In this document: positions 21,269 through 25,108 of the stretch, one piece after another
Position numbering within the stretch: position 1 is the stretch's first letter
How the letters are laid out: each line of letters begins with the position of its first letter
DNA from: an uncultured Alphaproteobacteria bacterium
Lineage (GTDB): Bacteria > Pseudomonadota > Alphaproteobacteria > Caulobacterales > Caulobacteraceae
Assembly: GCA_903822175.1 (NCBI GenBank)
Contig: CAIJOB010000038.1
Location: 1-64,000 of the forward strand
Length of the DNA stretch: 64,000 bases
Direction of reading: 5' to 3'
The notes under the pieces: model-generated
The model's database searches: none
Told to the model about the DNA's origin: nothing
What the model saw: the letters and a program-made list of their open reading frames with translations, nothing else
Translations under genes and position numbers: made by a program

Positions 21269-22173
21269 GCGCTGAGCTTGGCGGCGGGCTTCGGGCGCGA
21301 GGCCCATTGGGCCAGGACGACGCCGCCGAGCGCGATGACGGCGCCGGCGGTCTGCAGGGGCCCCAAGGCCTCGCCGAACAGCAGGAAGCCGGCGTAGGTC
21401 GCCACTACTGGCTGGACCAGCACCACGACCGAGGCGAGCGAGGTCGGCAGCCGGCCCATAGCCCAGGCGATGGAGCCCTGGCCGGCGGTGTGCACCAGGC
21501 CGAGGCCCACGCAGGCGGCGAGACCGGCCAATGTGGTCGGCAAGACCTGCTCGCGCAGCAACAGGGCGGCGGCCAGCAGCAGCGGCGCGCCGACCACGCC
21601 GGACCAGAACATCAAGCGGCTGGCGGCCTGGGTCTTGCGGCCCTCGGCTATGGCCAGGAAGTAGAGGGCGTACCAGAAGGCGGTCGCCAGCGAGAGCAGG
21701 TTGCCGAGCGGCGCGTTGAGGACGGGAACGCCCGCGCCCCGGCCGATCCCCATCATCCAGGCGCCGGCCACCGCGACCGTCATGGCCAGCACGAACAGCG
21801 CACGCGGCCGCTGCTTCAGGAATATCCAGGCAAACGCGGTGACCACGACGGGCGCCAGGTTCGACAGCACCGTGGACGCGCCGACCGAGGTGTATTTCAG
21901 CCCATAGTGCCAGAACCCCAGGTCGAGTGCGAAGAACAGGCCGCAGAGGACTGCGATGGGCGTCGGCTTGCCCAGCGGCCCGCTGGCCCGGCGGGTCATC
22001 ACCGCCAGCAGCGGCAGCGCGAAGACCAGGCGCCAGAGGCCGGCGGCGGCGGGACCGGTGCCGGTCAGCCGGACCAGGATGCCGGAAAAGCCGATGACGC
22101 AGGCGCCGAAGACCAGCGCGCCCACGGCCTGCCAGCGGTAGGCGCTGTCGGTGTGGATGGCCGTGTCCGTCAA
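21265..22173 (-). CDS. EamA/DMT-family transporter
   Basis: 302 aa with about ten membrane helices in two EamA repeats; exporters of amino acids or other metabolites. The first repeat ends near LGFWHYGLKYTSVGASTVLSNLAPV, the second has the matching GLVHTAGQGSIAWAMGRLPTSLASVVVL. The start is a TTG at 22173 that overlaps the gluQ TGA (TTGA), so it is coupled to gluQ. Cargo unknown. Confidence 0.85.
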   Translation of the reverse strand: MTDTAIHTDSAYRWQAVGALVFGACVIGFSGILVRLTGTGPAAAGLWRLVFALPLLAVMTRRASGPLGKPTPIAVLCGLFFALDLGFWHYGLKYTSVGASTVLSNLAPVVVTAFAWIFLKQRPRALFVLAMTVAVAGAWMMGIGRGAGVPVLNAPLGNLLSLATAFWYALYFLAIAEGRKTQAASRLMFWSGVVGAPLLLAAALLLREQVLPTTLAGLAACVGLGLVHTAGQGSIAWAMGRLPTSLASVVVLVQPVVATYAGFLLFGEALGPLQTAGAVIALGGVVLAQWASRPKPAAKLSA

Positions 22174-23024
22174 AAGCCCAGATCCCCGCGAAGCCCGTTC
22201 GCCGTCATACCGGAAGCGCGCAAGGTCCGCAGCGTCTGGGCCTGATCGCGCTTGGCGTAGCGCTTACCGTCGGGTCCGGCGAGCAGCCGATGGTGGCGGT
22301 AGCAGGGCGTCGGGAGCGCCAGCAGGGCCTGCAGCAGGCGCTGCACGTGGGTCGCCTCGAAGAGGTCGCGGCCGCGGATCACCTGCGTGACCCCCTGCAG
22401 GGCGTCGTCCACGACCACGGCCAGGTGGTAGGCGACGCCGACATCCTTGCGCGCCAGCACCACGTCGCCGCCGAGCTCTGGGCGGGCCTGGACCACGCCG
22501 TTCTCGCCGGCCGGGCCTTCGCCGTGCTCCTCGAAGGTCAGGTGGGCGAATCCGCTGAGGGCGCGGTGGGCGGCGTCCAGGGACAGGCGCCAAGCATAGG
22601 CCTCGCCGGCCTCGACGCGGGCGGCCTCTTCGTGCGCAGGCAACGGCGCGCCGCGGAAGGCCTCCATCGTTCCGTGCGGCGCGCTCTCGATGGCCTCGGC
22701 GACCTCGCGGCGCGTGCGGAAGCAGCGGTAGGTCAGGCCGCGTTCGGAAAGGTCGCGCAGAGCGGCGGCGTAGTCGGCCATGTGCTGCGACTGGCGGCGG
22801 ACCGGCTGTTCCCACGCCAGGCCCAGCCAGGCCAGGTCGTCGTAGATCGCCGCCTCATATTCGGCGCGGCAGCGGGTGGCGTCGATGTCTTCGATGCGGA
22901 GGATGAAGCGGCCGCGATTGGCGCGGGCGGCTTCGAAGGCGGTGAGCGCCGAAAAGGCGTGGCCCCGGTGCAGATGGCCGGTGGGCGAGGGCGCGAAGCG
23001 GGTGACGAAATTGGGTGGGGACAC
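22170..23024 (-). CDS. gluQ: Glutamyl-Q tRNA(Asp) synthetase
   Basis: 284 aa truncated GluRS paralogue that glutamylates queuosine in the tRNA-Asp wobble position. The class I HIGH-type motif is PSPTGHLHRGHA and the KMSKS equivalent GKRYAKRDQ; IEDIDATRC and the catalytic core are intact and the anticodon-binding domain is missing, as expected. I do not see the four-Cys/Tyr zinc site of the E. coli enzyme. It is 13 bases after the tetR stop and overlaps the EamA gene. Confidence 0.92.
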   Translation of the reverse strand: MSPPNFVTRFAPSPTGHLHRGHAFSALTAFEAARANRGRFILRIEDIDATRCRAEYEAAIYDDLAWLGLAWEQPVRRQSQHMADYAAALRDLSERGLTYRCFRTRREVAEAIESAPHGTMEAFRGAPLPAHEEAARVEAGEAYAWRLSLDAAHRALSGFAHLTFEEHGEGPAGENGVVQARPELGGDVVLARKDVGVAYHLAVVVDDALQGVTQVIRGRDLFEATHVQRLLQALLALPTPCYRHHRLLAGPDGKRYAKRDQAQTLRTLRASGMTANGLRGDLGF

Positions 23025-23037
23025 GGCCCCTTAGCGT

Positions 23038-23667
23038 TTAGTCCGCGCCGCCCTGGTGAAACAGGCCCATGTGGGCGAAGACGGCGCGCAGGAACGGGAC
23101 TTCCCCGCCGCAGGCCGCCTTGATGTGCTCGAACTGCTTGAAGCCGGCCATCTCGGCCAGGCCGTGGGCGGAGCACCAGGCGGCGGTGGTGGCCAGCTCG
23201 ATCTCGTGGGTGTCGTTGGGGTCGGCGCCGCCCTCGATCATGGTGTCGCGGACCTTGCAGTAGGCGTTGTCCTCGCTCTCCTGCATCTGGTCGGGCAGGT
23301 CGGCCTTGTCGCGGGCGGTATCGTACATCACCCGGTAGAGGGCCGGGTTCTCGCGGGCGAAACAGACATAGGCGACGCCCAGGTTGCTCATGGCTTCGCG
23401 GGGCGAGGGGGCGGCGGCCTTGGCCTTGGCGAGCGCGGCGTCCAGCAGGTCCCAGCCCTCGTGGGCGACCGCTTCCAGCAGTTCGCCCTTGTCCTTGAAG
23501 TGGTGGTAGGGGGCCGCCGGGCTGACGCCGGCCTCGCGGGCCACGGCGCGGAGCGACAGCGCGCTCGGCCCTTCGGCTTCCAGGAGGCGCCGGGCGGCGT
23601 CGACCAGGGCGCGGCTCAGATCGCCGTGATGATAGGGGCGGGCTTCGGCGGCTTGAGAGTCTCTCAT
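23038..23667 (-). CDS. TetR-family regulator facing two small peptide genes
   Basis: 209 aa. The N-terminal helix-turn-helix is SLRAVAREAGVSPAAPYHHF (about 38-57), followed by KDKGELLEAVA; the C-terminal part resembles the WHG-type ligand-binding domain (AAWCSAHGLAEMAGF). ATG 23667 chosen; the frame is open up to a GTG at 23715. Upstream lie two tandem copies of a 26-base unit with GCTCAGATAGC, and the same site recurs before the second peptide gene at 24.1 kb. It probably represses itself and both peptides, releasing them on binding a small ligand (inference). Confidence 0.88.
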   Translation of the reverse strand: MRDSQAAEARPYHHGDLSRALVDAARRLLEAEGPSALSLRAVAREAGVSPAAPYHHFKDKGELLEAVAHEGWDLLDAALAKAKAAAPSPREAMSNLGVAYVCFARENPALYRVMYDTARDKADLPDQMQESEDNAYCKVRDTMIEGGADPNDTHEIELATTAAWCSAHGLAEMAGFKQFEHIKAACGGEVPFLRAVFAHMGLFHQGGAD

Positions 23668-23705
23668 TACCTGACTGTAATACGCGATCTGGGCGCCGTA
23701 AAGAT

Positions 23706-23757
23706 ATCTTGACACCGCTCAGATAGCTGTTATCTTGACGATGCTCAGATAGCAAAT
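23706..23757. promoter_or_regulatory. Tandem TetR-type operators overlapping a promoter
   Basis: Two 26-base units (23706-23731 and 23732-23757), each ATCTTGAC then three variable bases, then GCTCAGATAGC. A good forward promoter lies across them: TTGACA (23709-23714), 16 bases, TATCTT (23731-23736), pointing to the peptide gene at 23819. GCTCAGATAGC occurs at 23717-23727, between -35 and -10, and at 23743-23753. On the minus strand the second site reads TGCTATCTGAGCATCGTC and could provide an extended -10 for tetR. The layout is that of steric repression. Confidence 0.65.
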
Positions 23758-23818
23758 TCGCAGCACGCCCATCAGTTCAAATAGTGGGCGGCGGCTCCAA
23801 CTCAAAGGTGTGTGTCAC

Positions 23819-23920
23819 ATGTCTATTGCCCGCTTCTTCGACAAGATCGCCCCGGCCTTGATCCTTCCCGCCCTCGTGCTGGTTTTGGGATCGTCGGTGG
23901 CGACTGTCGCCGGCATCTGA
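23819..23920 (+). CDS. 33-aa hydrophobic peptide 1, TetR-controlled
   Basis: ATG at 23819, 8 bases after AAAGGTG, to TGA 23918-23920. The product begins MSIARFFDKIAPAL, continues as one hydrophobic helix rich in Leu/Val/Ala and ends ATVAGI. It has the same length (33 aa), same MSI start, a basic N-terminal helix and the same style of ending as the peptide at 24169, so the two look like paralogues. A strong terminator follows. Membrane peptide of unknown role; toxin-like, transporter-associated or signalling functions are all possible. Confidence 0.6.
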   Translation: MSIARFFDKIAPALILPALVLVLGSSVATVAGI

Positions 23921-23967
23921 TCCTCCCCCAGCCACGTCCCCAGTGGCCGTCAATGCCGACCGGATGA

Positions 23968-23993
23968 GGCCCCCGAGCGCGGGGGCCTTTTTC
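23968..23993 (+). terminator. Intrinsic terminator after peptide 1
   Basis: GGCCCCCG, loop AGCG, CGGGGGCC, then TTTTT: a textbook Rho-independent terminator 48 bases after the stop of the first small peptide gene. Its presence supports a real short transcript from the promoter at 23.7 kb. Confidence 0.85.
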
Positions 23994-24064
23994 GTCGCCG
24001 CGGCATCATCCATCGGATGCATGCATTTTTGCATAGCTGCACTGCACAATTAGACATCTAGGCA

Positions 24065-24095
24065 ATGCTTAGATTAGTGCTATCTAAGCATCGTC
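24065..24095. promoter_or_regulatory. Third TetR-type operator, before peptide 2
   Basis: ATGCTTAGAT and ATCTAAGCAT (24065-24074, 24082-24091) are exact inverted arms around 7 bases. TGCTATCTAAGCATCGTC at 24078-24095 matches the minus-strand site at 23737-23754 in 17 of 18 bases. TG-C-TATCTA could be an extended -10 for the peptide gene at 24169, so repressor binding would cover the promoter. Confidence 0.6.
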
Positions 24096-24168
24096 CACAT
24101 CGGACATCGCTCACTTGGAGCGGGGGGCAAACGGGAAACCGGGAGCCGCTACTAAAAGGAACTAAGTC

Positions 24169-24270
24169 ATGTCGATCAAAATGAACCGCATCCTCGACGT
24201 CGTCGCCTCCTTCGCGATCGTCGTTCTCGGCCTCAGCCTCGCCGGCGCCACCGCCGTCGTCGGCGCCTAA
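24169..24270 (+). CDS. 33-aa hydrophobic peptide 2, TetR-controlled
   Basis: ATG at 24169, 8 bases after AAAAGGA, to TAA 24268-24270. Begins MSIKMNRILDVVASFAIVVL: a short basic N-terminus and one hydrophobic helix, ending AVVGA. Same length and layout as peptide 1. The 277 bases after it, up to the HNH gene, hold an inverted repeat GCCTCGCC/GGCGAGGC (24294-24325) and GGTCCC/GGGACC (about 24404-24421), possibly a terminator without a T run, and no further gene that I can support. Confidence 0.6.
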   Translation: MSIKMNRILDVVASFAIVVLGLSLAGATAVVGA

Positions 24271-24547
24271 GCCAAGAGATGCCCTGCCGATAAGCCTCGC
24301 CCGCGTTCAGACGTGTGGCGAGGCCCGGCGCATCCCCTTCCCCGATCTCATTGGGGGATCCCATTCTCCGTCATGGAGAAGTCTTCGAATCTTTCCTATA
24401 AGGGTCCCACTAGCGGGACCGCCCGACTTAGCTGAAGGGCCGCTCGCCGCATCCACGCGTCGCGAACAGGGGCTTAAGTCTTCAGTTCATCAGCGTTTGA
24501 AATAGGCGCCCAGCGCCCCGAAGCCTCCCGCAGCTGGGAGGCCGCCC

Positions 24548-25108
24548 ATGCAGGTGCTTAGCCGCCCGCCGTCCGGGGCGCCCGCCCTCGTGCTCAACGC
24601 CGATTTCCGGCCGCTCTCTTATTATCCGCTCTCGCTATGGCCCTGGCAGGACGTGATCAAGGCGGTGTTCCTCGACCGCGTCGATGTGGTCTCCACCTAC
24701 GACCAGGTGGTCCATTCGCCGTCCTTCGAGATGAAGCTGCCAAGCGTCGTCTCGCTGAAGCAGTACGTTACCCAGGACCGGCCGCCGGCCTTCACGCGGT
24801 TCAACCTGTTCCTCCGCGACGCCTTCACCTGCCAGTACTGCCGCTGCGGCGAGGATCTGACCTTCGACCATGTGATCCCGCGCTCGCGGGGCGGGCGGAC
24901 CACCTGGGAGAACATCGTCACGGCGTGCGCGCGCTGCAACCTGACCAAGGGCGGGCGCACGCCGCGCGAGGCGCACATGTATCCGCTGCACAATCCGCAC
25001 CGCCCCTCGGCCTTCGAACTGCAGCAGCACGGCCGCCGCTTCCCGCCACACCACCTGCACGAAAGCTGGCTCGACTACCTCTACTGGGACATCGAGCTGG
25101 AGGCTTAG
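24548..25108 (+). CDS. HNH endonuclease family protein
   Basis: 186 aa. The HNH/McrA-type core is complete: Cys95 and Cys98 (CQYC), Asp107-His108 (FDHVIPRSRGG), Asn122 (TWENIV) and Cys127/Cys130 (CARC). The N-terminus (LVLNADFRPLSYYPLSLWPW) belongs to a widely conserved housekeeping-type bacterial HNH protein rather than to a mobile-element nuclease. ATG at 24548 after GGGAGG. A short hairpin ATGTG-TGC/GCACAT lies at 25117-25136. The gap 25109-25327 otherwise shows nothing. Confidence 0.85.
   Translation: MQVLSRPPSGAPALVLNADFRPLSYYPLSLWPWQDVIKAVFLDRVDVVSTYDQVVHSPSFEMKLPSVVSLKQYVTQDRPPAFTRFNLFLRDAFTCQYCRCGEDLTFDHVIPRSRGGRTTWENIVTACARCNLTKGGRTPREAHMYPLHNPHRPSAFELQQHGRRFPPHHLHESWLDYLYWDIELEA

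What the first reader, a model, noticed from the sequence alone, without database searches (positions are those of the whole stretch)
23667..24270. TetR regulator with two paralogous 33-aa membrane peptides under a shared operator
Two short genes (23819-23920 and 24169-24270) each encode exactly 33 residues, start MSI, have a basic N-terminus and one hydrophobic helix, and each has a Shine-Dalgarno 8 bases upstream. The first has a textbook promoter and terminator. An operator of 18 bases (TGCTATCTRAGCATCGTC) occurs on the minus strand before tetR/peptide 1 and on the plus strand before peptide 2 with 17 of 18 matches; a further copy of the core GCTCAGATAGC lies between -35 and -10 of peptide 1. 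The parts therefore look like one regulon. Nothing in my knowledge names such a pair. Possible roles: membrane stress peptides, pump modulators, or signal peptides.
Basis: partly seen in the sequence, partly recalled or inferred. Interest (0 to 1): 0.78.

Follow-up and report, generated by a model that had tools for sequence, protein, structure and literature searches.

The report
TetR switch for tiny membrane peptides
A repressor gene in Phenylobacterium and Caulobacter sits beside one to three genes for 30-42 residue hydrophobic peptides that share its likely DNA-binding sites and are kept by selection, which points to a small unannotated membrane-control switch whose trigger and target are unknown.

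Summary
TetR (23038-23667, minus) has orthologues in 70 of 72 genus genomes and 40 of 41 Caulobacter genomes. All 120 loci compared encode at least one 30-42 residue hydrophobic peptide. The reading frame is under selection: dN/dS 0.29 over 39 non-overlapping pairs; pooled pairs 0.35 in frame, 1.43 and 1.92 shifted. One Asp is invariant in 112 of 112 distinct first peptides, and the two peptide types are paralogues.

The real operator is a 21-bp palindrome, TATCT-n11-AGATA: five copies in the window, all here, covering the -35 and -10 of peptide 1. All 38 strict operator hits in 40 genus genomes lie within 200 nt of a peptide gene. The repressor's output thus appears to be itself and the peptides. 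No Pfam, NCBIfam, PHROG or Rfam family matches.

Best reading: a ligand-released TetR switch making micropeptides that modulate an inner-membrane partner. Architecture is shown by sequence; repression, ligand, partner and effect are inferred. Related TetRs elsewhere face carotenoid oxygenases with a similar operator, hinting at a lipophilic ligand.

The parts
23038..23667 (-). tetR: TetR-family repressor, 209 aa, TetR_N + TetR_C_33
   Evidence: Pfam PF00440 1e-15 and PF13305 7.2e-11; AlphaFold mean pLDDT 81.9, best Foldseek PDB match 3on2
23686..23706 (.). operator 1 (9 of 10 half-site matches), 18 nt from the tetR start codon
23705..23725 (.). operator 2 (10 of 10), overlaps the -35 of peptide 1
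23709..23736 (+). promoter of peptide 1, TTGACA-N16-TATCTT; a TTGAC-N16/17-TAnnnn promoter precedes the first peptide in 104 of 120 loci
23731..23751 (.). operator 3 (10 of 10), overlaps the -10 of peptide 1
23804..23808 (+). Shine-Dalgarno AAAGG of peptide 1
   Evidence: read directly
23819..23920 (+). peptide 1, 33 aa, MSIARFFDKIAPALILPALVLVLGSSVATVAGI, one hydrophobic stretch
   Evidence: a first peptide starts 127-240 nt from tetR in 119 of 120 loci
23968..23992 (+). intrinsic terminator of peptide 1 (stem 7, loop 6, T5)
   Evidence: a terminator follows the first peptide in 90 of 118 loci against 1-5 in five mononucleotide shuffles; not listed by the scan
24055..24075 (.). operator 4 (8 of 10), upstream of peptide 2
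24081..24101 (.). operator 5 (8 of 10), 26 bp from operator 4, overlaps the presumed -10 TATCTA of peptide 2
   Evidence: 26 bp is the commonest spacing (47 of 127 neighbouring pairs under 60 bp apart, duplicates of loci included)
24156..24160 (+). Shine-Dalgarno AAGGA of peptide 2
   Evidence: read directly
24169..24270 (+). peptide 2, 33 aa, MSIKMNRILDVVASFAIVVLGLSLAGATAVVGA
   Evidence: paralogue of peptide 1
22170..23024 (-). flank, not counted as part of the system: GluQ-type tRNA synthetase paralogue (tRNA-synt_1c; the name GluQ is mine), 13 bp downstream of tetR; found on the same strand in 80 of 80 loci
24548..25108 (+). flank, not counted as part of the system: HNH endonuclease, found on the other side in 74 of 80 loci

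Best explanation
This is a self-contained chemical switch. A TetR dimer binds 21-bp palindromes, often set in pairs 26 bp apart, over the -35 and -10 of the peptide genes and beside its own start, silencing the peptides and itself. A lipophilic ligand, or a product of membrane damage, releases it. The peptide genes are then transcribed, the first as a short message of its own, and make 30-42 residue peptides. A peptide inserts N-in as one helix, with a conserved juxtamembrane motif (E-R-x-x-D-R in the first type, R-x-x-D in the second), and modulates an inner-membrane protein or complex. Duplicated copies with their own operators raise the dose or reach different partners. Shown by sequence: genes, operator-like palindromes, promoter boxes, selection on the frame, synteny, local clustering of sites. 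Inferred: repression, ligand, membrane insertion, partner and effect.
For: Peptide in 120 of 120 loci compared: 114 by a strict rule (1 on the opposite strand, 0.55 on average in shuffles) and 6 by eye. Non-overlapping pairs: dN/dS 0.29 (pN<pS in 38 of 39) for first and 0.38 (22 of 23) for later peptides; pooled pairs 0.35 and 0.44 in frame against 1.18-1.99 in shifted frames. Invariant Asp in 112 of 112 distinct first peptides, followed by Arg in 92% and Lys in 4%. Operators overlap promoter boxes. The strict operator pattern gives 38 sites in 24 of 40 genus genomes, and 38 of 38 lie within 200 nt of a family peptide, also where the peptide is on another contig or 1.4-2 kb from tetR. A looser pattern gives 81 sites in 41 Caulobacter genomes; 56 lie within 200 nt of tetR, in 39 of the 40 genomes that have it. 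The 22 peptide-linked TetRs put in a tree lie on one side of a branch, 100/99, from 21 others. TetR is missing from six g20 genomes that keep the HNH gene; no operator or convincing peptide lies in the 3.5 kb around it, and in the four of them searched whole the best peptide-profile E was 0.10. Net charge 0 or +1 in 97 of 112; no charged residue beyond the one after the first Asp in 107 of 112.
Against: No expression, footprint or localisation data. Nothing identifies a partner. The strict pattern has no hit in the window's own genome or in 15 others of the 40, so it tests specificity, not coverage. 25 of 81 looser hits in Caulobacter lie elsewhere; 12 are one exact 19-mer. Five were fetched: none adjoins a recognised peptide, one lies in an rpsC-like frame, and two (G256, G385, same sequence) lie about 560-590 nt upstream of an acyl-CoA-dehydrogenase-like frame, so a wider regulon is not excluded. 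A terminator was found after only 27 of 65 later peptides, so these may be read through. Operators 4 and 5 of the window are weaker (8 of 10), and the peptide 2 promoter is poor against the consensus.
Confidence: 0.55

Rival explanations
1. The peptides are membrane-active toxins or growth brakes, like the SOS-controlled DinQ or TisB, held off by TetR and released under stress to depolarise the membrane or stop division.
For: Size, one hydrophobic stretch and multi-operator control resemble DinQ (abstract and outline read) and the 29-aa SOS inhibitor SidA of Caulobacter (passages read).
Against: Net charge is about 0 rather than strongly cationic. No minus-strand sigma-70-like hit at the consensus used. 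The locus is strictly syntenic rather than mobile-looking (no plasmid or phage match with one composite query). Up to three copies are kept under purifying selection.
Confidence: 0.2
2. The peptides feed back on the TetR or on handling of its ligand, for example by holding the ligand in the membrane or binding the repressor.
For: Linkage of TetR and peptide in all 120 loci compared, and no other clear regulon member.
Against: Nothing in the sequence shows contact, and one peptide would do; yet copies are multiplied and diverged.
Confidence: 0.1
3. The ORFs are parts of regulatory RNAs and the peptides are incidental, or dual-function.
For: Short transcription unit with a terminator after the first peptide in 90 of 118 loci.
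Against: Codon-position signal and dN/dS favour coding; no Rfam match at E up to 1 in 22900-24700.
Confidence: 0.04
4. The peptides are signal-peptide-like precursors whose last residues are released as extracellular signals.
For: A-x-A within the last 12 residues in 98 of 112 first and 42 of 60 later distinct peptides; basic residue near the N-terminus and hydrophobic core.
Against: The A-x-A pattern is loose and Ala-rich helices give it by chance; the residues behind it are few and variable; in the first peptides the most conserved part is the N-terminal E-R-x-x-D-R, not the tail.
Confidence: 0.06

Closest known systems
DinQ / TisB (E. coli SOS-controlled single-helix peptides; TisB details recalled)
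   Same: Tiny inner-membrane peptides under a repressor with stress release
   Different: Sites here are TetR-type palindromes, not LexA boxes; no antisense promoter seen; near-neutral charge; conserved juxtamembrane acidic-basic motif; paralogues with own operators
SidA (C. crescentus, 29 aa, SOS division inhibitor interacting with FtsW) and DidA
   Same: Small repressor-controlled membrane peptide in the same bacterial family; acts on a membrane protein
   Different: No Caulobacter LexA box (GTTCN7GTTC as printed in the paper) with up to one mismatch between 22746 and 25015; link to division untested
TetR regulators of the same profile beside RPE65-family carotenoid oxygenases
   Same: Related repressor and, in five of six such loci, a palindrome 15-17 of 19 identical to the best-matching window operator (8 of the 19 are fixed by the search pattern)
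   Different: Their divergent gene is an RPE65-family enzyme frame of 352 residues or more in the loci (cut at the locus end in several), not a micropeptide
TetR-pump divergons such as AcrR, MtrR, TtgR (recalled)
   Same: Divergent repressor layout
   Different: No pump under the operators; the output is 30-42 residue peptides

Membership tests
TetR family repressors | N-terminal TetR HTH domain | tested here: met
   PF00440, 57.6 bits against cutoff 24
TetR family repressors | TetR_C_33 ligand-domain match and all-helical fold | tested here: met
   PF13305, 43.1 bits against 26.8; all-helical model; 3on2_C TM 0.71 by query length, 32% identity
TetR family repressors | Palindromic operator at its own promoter | tested here: met
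   117 of 120 loci have an exact ATCT-n11-AGAT within 160 nt of tetR; binding itself not testable here
SOS micropeptides (SidA, TisB, DinQ) | LexA operator upstream | tested here: not met
   GTTCN7GTTC with up to one mismatch: 35 hits in the window, 33.3 expected, none between 22746 and 25015; box as printed in PMC4211646
SOS micropeptides (SidA, TisB, DinQ) | Toxic or division-blocking on induction | not testable with these tools
   needs expression
Type I toxin-antitoxin | Antisense RNA to the toxin message | tested here: inconclusive
   No minus-strand sigma-70-like hit in 23300-24600; weak or other promoters would be missed
Known small-protein families (Pfam, NCBIfam, PHROGs) | Significant profile match of the peptides | tested here: not met
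   36 diverse members: best E-values 0.095 (Pfam), 0.014 (NCBIfam), 0.015 (PHROGs); no family matched by more than one member

The most novel reading that the evidence does not exclude
A TetR regulator related to carotenoid-oxygenase regulators was turned, early in a Caulobacteraceae lineage, into a membrane-quality sensor whose only outputs are a new family of juxtamembrane D-R micropeptides that retune one inner-membrane complex and multiply by tandem duplication together with their operators.
Probability: 0.3. Interest if true: 0.78.

Novelty: new variant of a known kind. Interest (0 to 1): 0.64.

Why it matters
It adds a micropeptide family, unnamed in the libraries searched, that lies in a conserved locus of Phenylobacterium and Caulobacter, the genus of the cell-cycle model C. 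crescentus. It gives a ready genetic handle: delete the repressor to switch on the peptides. A transcription factor whose visible regulon is nothing but itself and micropeptides would let the function of a small membrane protein be read with few other genes moving.

Tried and rejected
Rejected: chance repeat (mean 0.04 in shuffles); mobile toxin cassette (synteny; no plasmid or phage match with one typed composite query); known RNA; conserved operon partners (genes that I recognised as greA-like and DNA-glycosylase-like follow the peptide in some Caulobacter loci; the exact operator cores found there lie only at tetR/peptide, 12 loci read).

Led nowhere: Pfam and NCBIfam scans of the peptides alone and family scans; paper searches for a TetR with a small membrane protein (listings only, apart from the papers named), for the WHG domain (no paper) and for TetR with carotenoid oxygenase (listing only). 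The top fold matches do not name a ligand for the nearest structure, 3on2, titled as of unknown function.

Against my reading, and rows dropped: 3 of 150 loci with under 250 nt upstream were left out, and of the rest one of each set identical over the first 300 nt was kept, giving 120; 7 pairs among these are still over 97% identical over 250 nt. Six of 120 failed the strict ORF rule and were accepted by eye. One locus (L084) keeps only a second-type peptide. Pooled dN/dS pairs share sequences; the non-overlapping pairs are the figure to trust, and even these are not corrected by a tree. The tree used 22 of the 120 peptide-linked TetRs and 21 of 23 others (L181 and L183 fell out as too short), and warns of long branches among the others. 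The unlinked copy in G057 has only a degenerate operator. HNH was not found in 6 of 80 loci, of which L103 and L119 have 3 kb of flank. The A2 profile used for distribution was built from 11 Phenylobacterium rows.

Full report
What is there. The window holds tetR (23038-23667, minus; Pfam TetR_N and TetR_C_33) and, divergent from it, two 33-residue ORFs. Peptide 1 has TTGACA-N16-TATCTT, the only sigma-70-like site in 23300-24600, and a strong terminator (the scan did not list it). Scanning the 64 kb for 21-mers with at least 8 of 10 half-site matches gave five sites, all between tetR and peptide 2. Sites 2 and 3 cover the -35 and -10 of peptide 1; site 1 lies 18 nt before the tetR start; sites 4 and 5 stand before peptide 2.

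Is it conserved? TetR orthologues occur in 70 of 72 genomes of the genus (G008, 73% complete, has no hit and G017 only a distant one; G003, G020 and G044 are split, partial or carry a stop). Contigs of equal length in a named collection identify the genus as Phenylobacterium (e.g. 579896 and 1054358 bases) and genus g22 as Caulobacter (406371 and 271325 bases). In g22, 40 of 41 genomes have it; the exception is 70% complete. In an even draw of the order, 34 of 299 genomes have it at E up to 1e-45, in five genera of one family and in none of the 20 listed g20 genomes. In six g20 genomes the HNH neighbour is present, but tetR, the GluQ-type gene, the operator and a convincing peptide are absent from the 3.5 kb around it. 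I oriented 150 loci on tetR. After leaving out 3 with under 250 nt upstream and copies identical over the first 300 nt, 120 remain; 7 pairs of these are over 97% identical over 250 nt. A strict rule (ATG, Shine-Dalgarno, 27-48 codons, hydrophobic) finds a peptide in 114 of 120, on the opposite strand in 1, in shuffles in 0.55 on average. The other six show the peptide by eye. One of the 120, L084, has only a second-type peptide. Lengths are 31-42 for first and 30-40 for later peptides.

Is it coding? Among 39 non-overlapping pairs of first peptides dN/dS is 0.29, with pN below pS in 38; for later peptides 0.38 and 22 of 23. Over all pairs of 3-30% divergence it is 0.35 (354 pairs) and 0.44 (139 pairs) in frame, and 1.43, 1.92, 1.18 and 1.99 in the shifted frames. 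In the 112 distinct first peptides one Asp never varies and is followed by Arg in 92% and Lys in 4%; Glu and Arg at the preceding conserved places stand at 90% and 86%. Later peptides keep the Asp at 98%. A profile of first peptides scores all 60 distinct later peptides above the 99th percentile of shuffles, so the family grew by duplication.

Is the regulon local? The strict operator pattern found 38 sites in 24 of 40 genus genomes; it has none in the window's own genome, whose sites differ from it. All 38 lie within 200 nt of a family peptide, including contigs of G016 and G035 without tetR and sites 2 kb (G028) and 1.4 kb (G021) from tetR. In the window's own genome the pattern ATCT-n7-GCTnAGAT has three exact hits, all in this locus. 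A looser pattern found 81 sites in 41 Caulobacter genomes; 56 lie within 200 nt of tetR, in 39 of the 40 genomes with tetR. Of the other 25, 12 are one exact 19-mer; I fetched five and recognised no peptide beside them, though no peptide profile was run there. A peptide copy on another contig of G057 has one degenerate operator. Synteny is strict: the GluQ-type gene on the tetR side in 80 of 80 loci, HNH on the other in 74 of 80. The module looks old and vertically inherited.

Where the regulator comes from. The 22 peptide-linked TetRs in a tree of 43 lie on one side of a branch (100/99; root unknown, long branches among the others). In a class-wide draw of 289 genomes, 11 others hold TetRs at E up to 1e-35. 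Eleven such loci, one a genome, were read; in six the divergent frame is RPE65-family (L201-L205, L207; L202 and L203 are from one genus). Five of the six have an ATCTTAAC-type palindrome, 15 to 17 of 19 identical to the best-matching of four window operators on either strand; 8 of the 19 are fixed by the search pattern. L205 has none. Other relatives face frames that I took for hydrolases, SDR enzymes or a PBP-like protein (recognised by me, not scanned). A lipophilic ligand follows as a hint, no more. The peptide profile has no credible hit in the other 288 of those genomes: the one other match at E up to 0.01 is 18 positions inside a 643-residue frame.

How it most likely works. Inferred: the repressor blocks RNA polymerase at the peptide promoters; a ligand releases it; short messages make peptides that insert N-in (charged residues on the N side, none beyond the residue after the first Asp in 107 of 112) and dock by the E-R-x-x-D-R stretch on a membrane partner. 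A toxin of the DinQ/TisB kind is less likely because of neutral charge, syntenic inheritance and multiplication under purifying selection, but is not excluded. SidA, a 29-aa inner-membrane protein of Caulobacter that interacts with FtsW (passages read), shows that such a peptide can act on one partner; membership with SidA is not claimed, as no LexA box was found.

Novelty. Pfam, NCBIfam, PHROGs and Rfam gave no significant match. Five paper searches (open-licence PMC only) listed no description that I recognised as this. Ribosome profiling in C. [quoted passage not shown] whether this one is among them could not be checked.

Noticed in passing
L201, L202, L203, L204, L205, L207: TetR relatives elsewhere in the class are divergent to RPE65-family (carotenoid oxygenase) frames; five of the six have a palindrome much like the window operator.
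   Followed up: partly
G057:C22 (L178:4506-4628): An unlinked peptide copy lies between a RarD/EamA-like transporter gene and a beta-lactamase-family-like gene (names mine), with a degenerate operator.
   Followed up: partly
L084: Locus that lacks peptide 1 but keeps an exact operator core near tetR and a second-type peptide with its own operator.
   Followed up: partly
L189 (G000:C15): A distant paralogue of this TetR in the same genome also sits beside an RPE65-family gene.
   Followed up: no
G256:C50 (L214) and G385:C10 (L215): The same ATCTTCACAGTGTTCAGAT palindrome lies about 560-590 nt upstream of an acyl-CoA-dehydrogenase-like frame; perhaps another TetR's site.
   Followed up: no
Caulobacter genomes, e.g. 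L213:951: A 19-mer ATCTGGCCGGCGTGCAGAT recurs away from tetR in 12 of 41 genomes, with close variants in a few more.
   Followed up: no
window 22170-23667: The GluQ-type synthetase gene follows tetR by 13 bp and may be co-transcribed with it, so derepression could also raise a tRNA-modifying enzyme.
   Followed up: no
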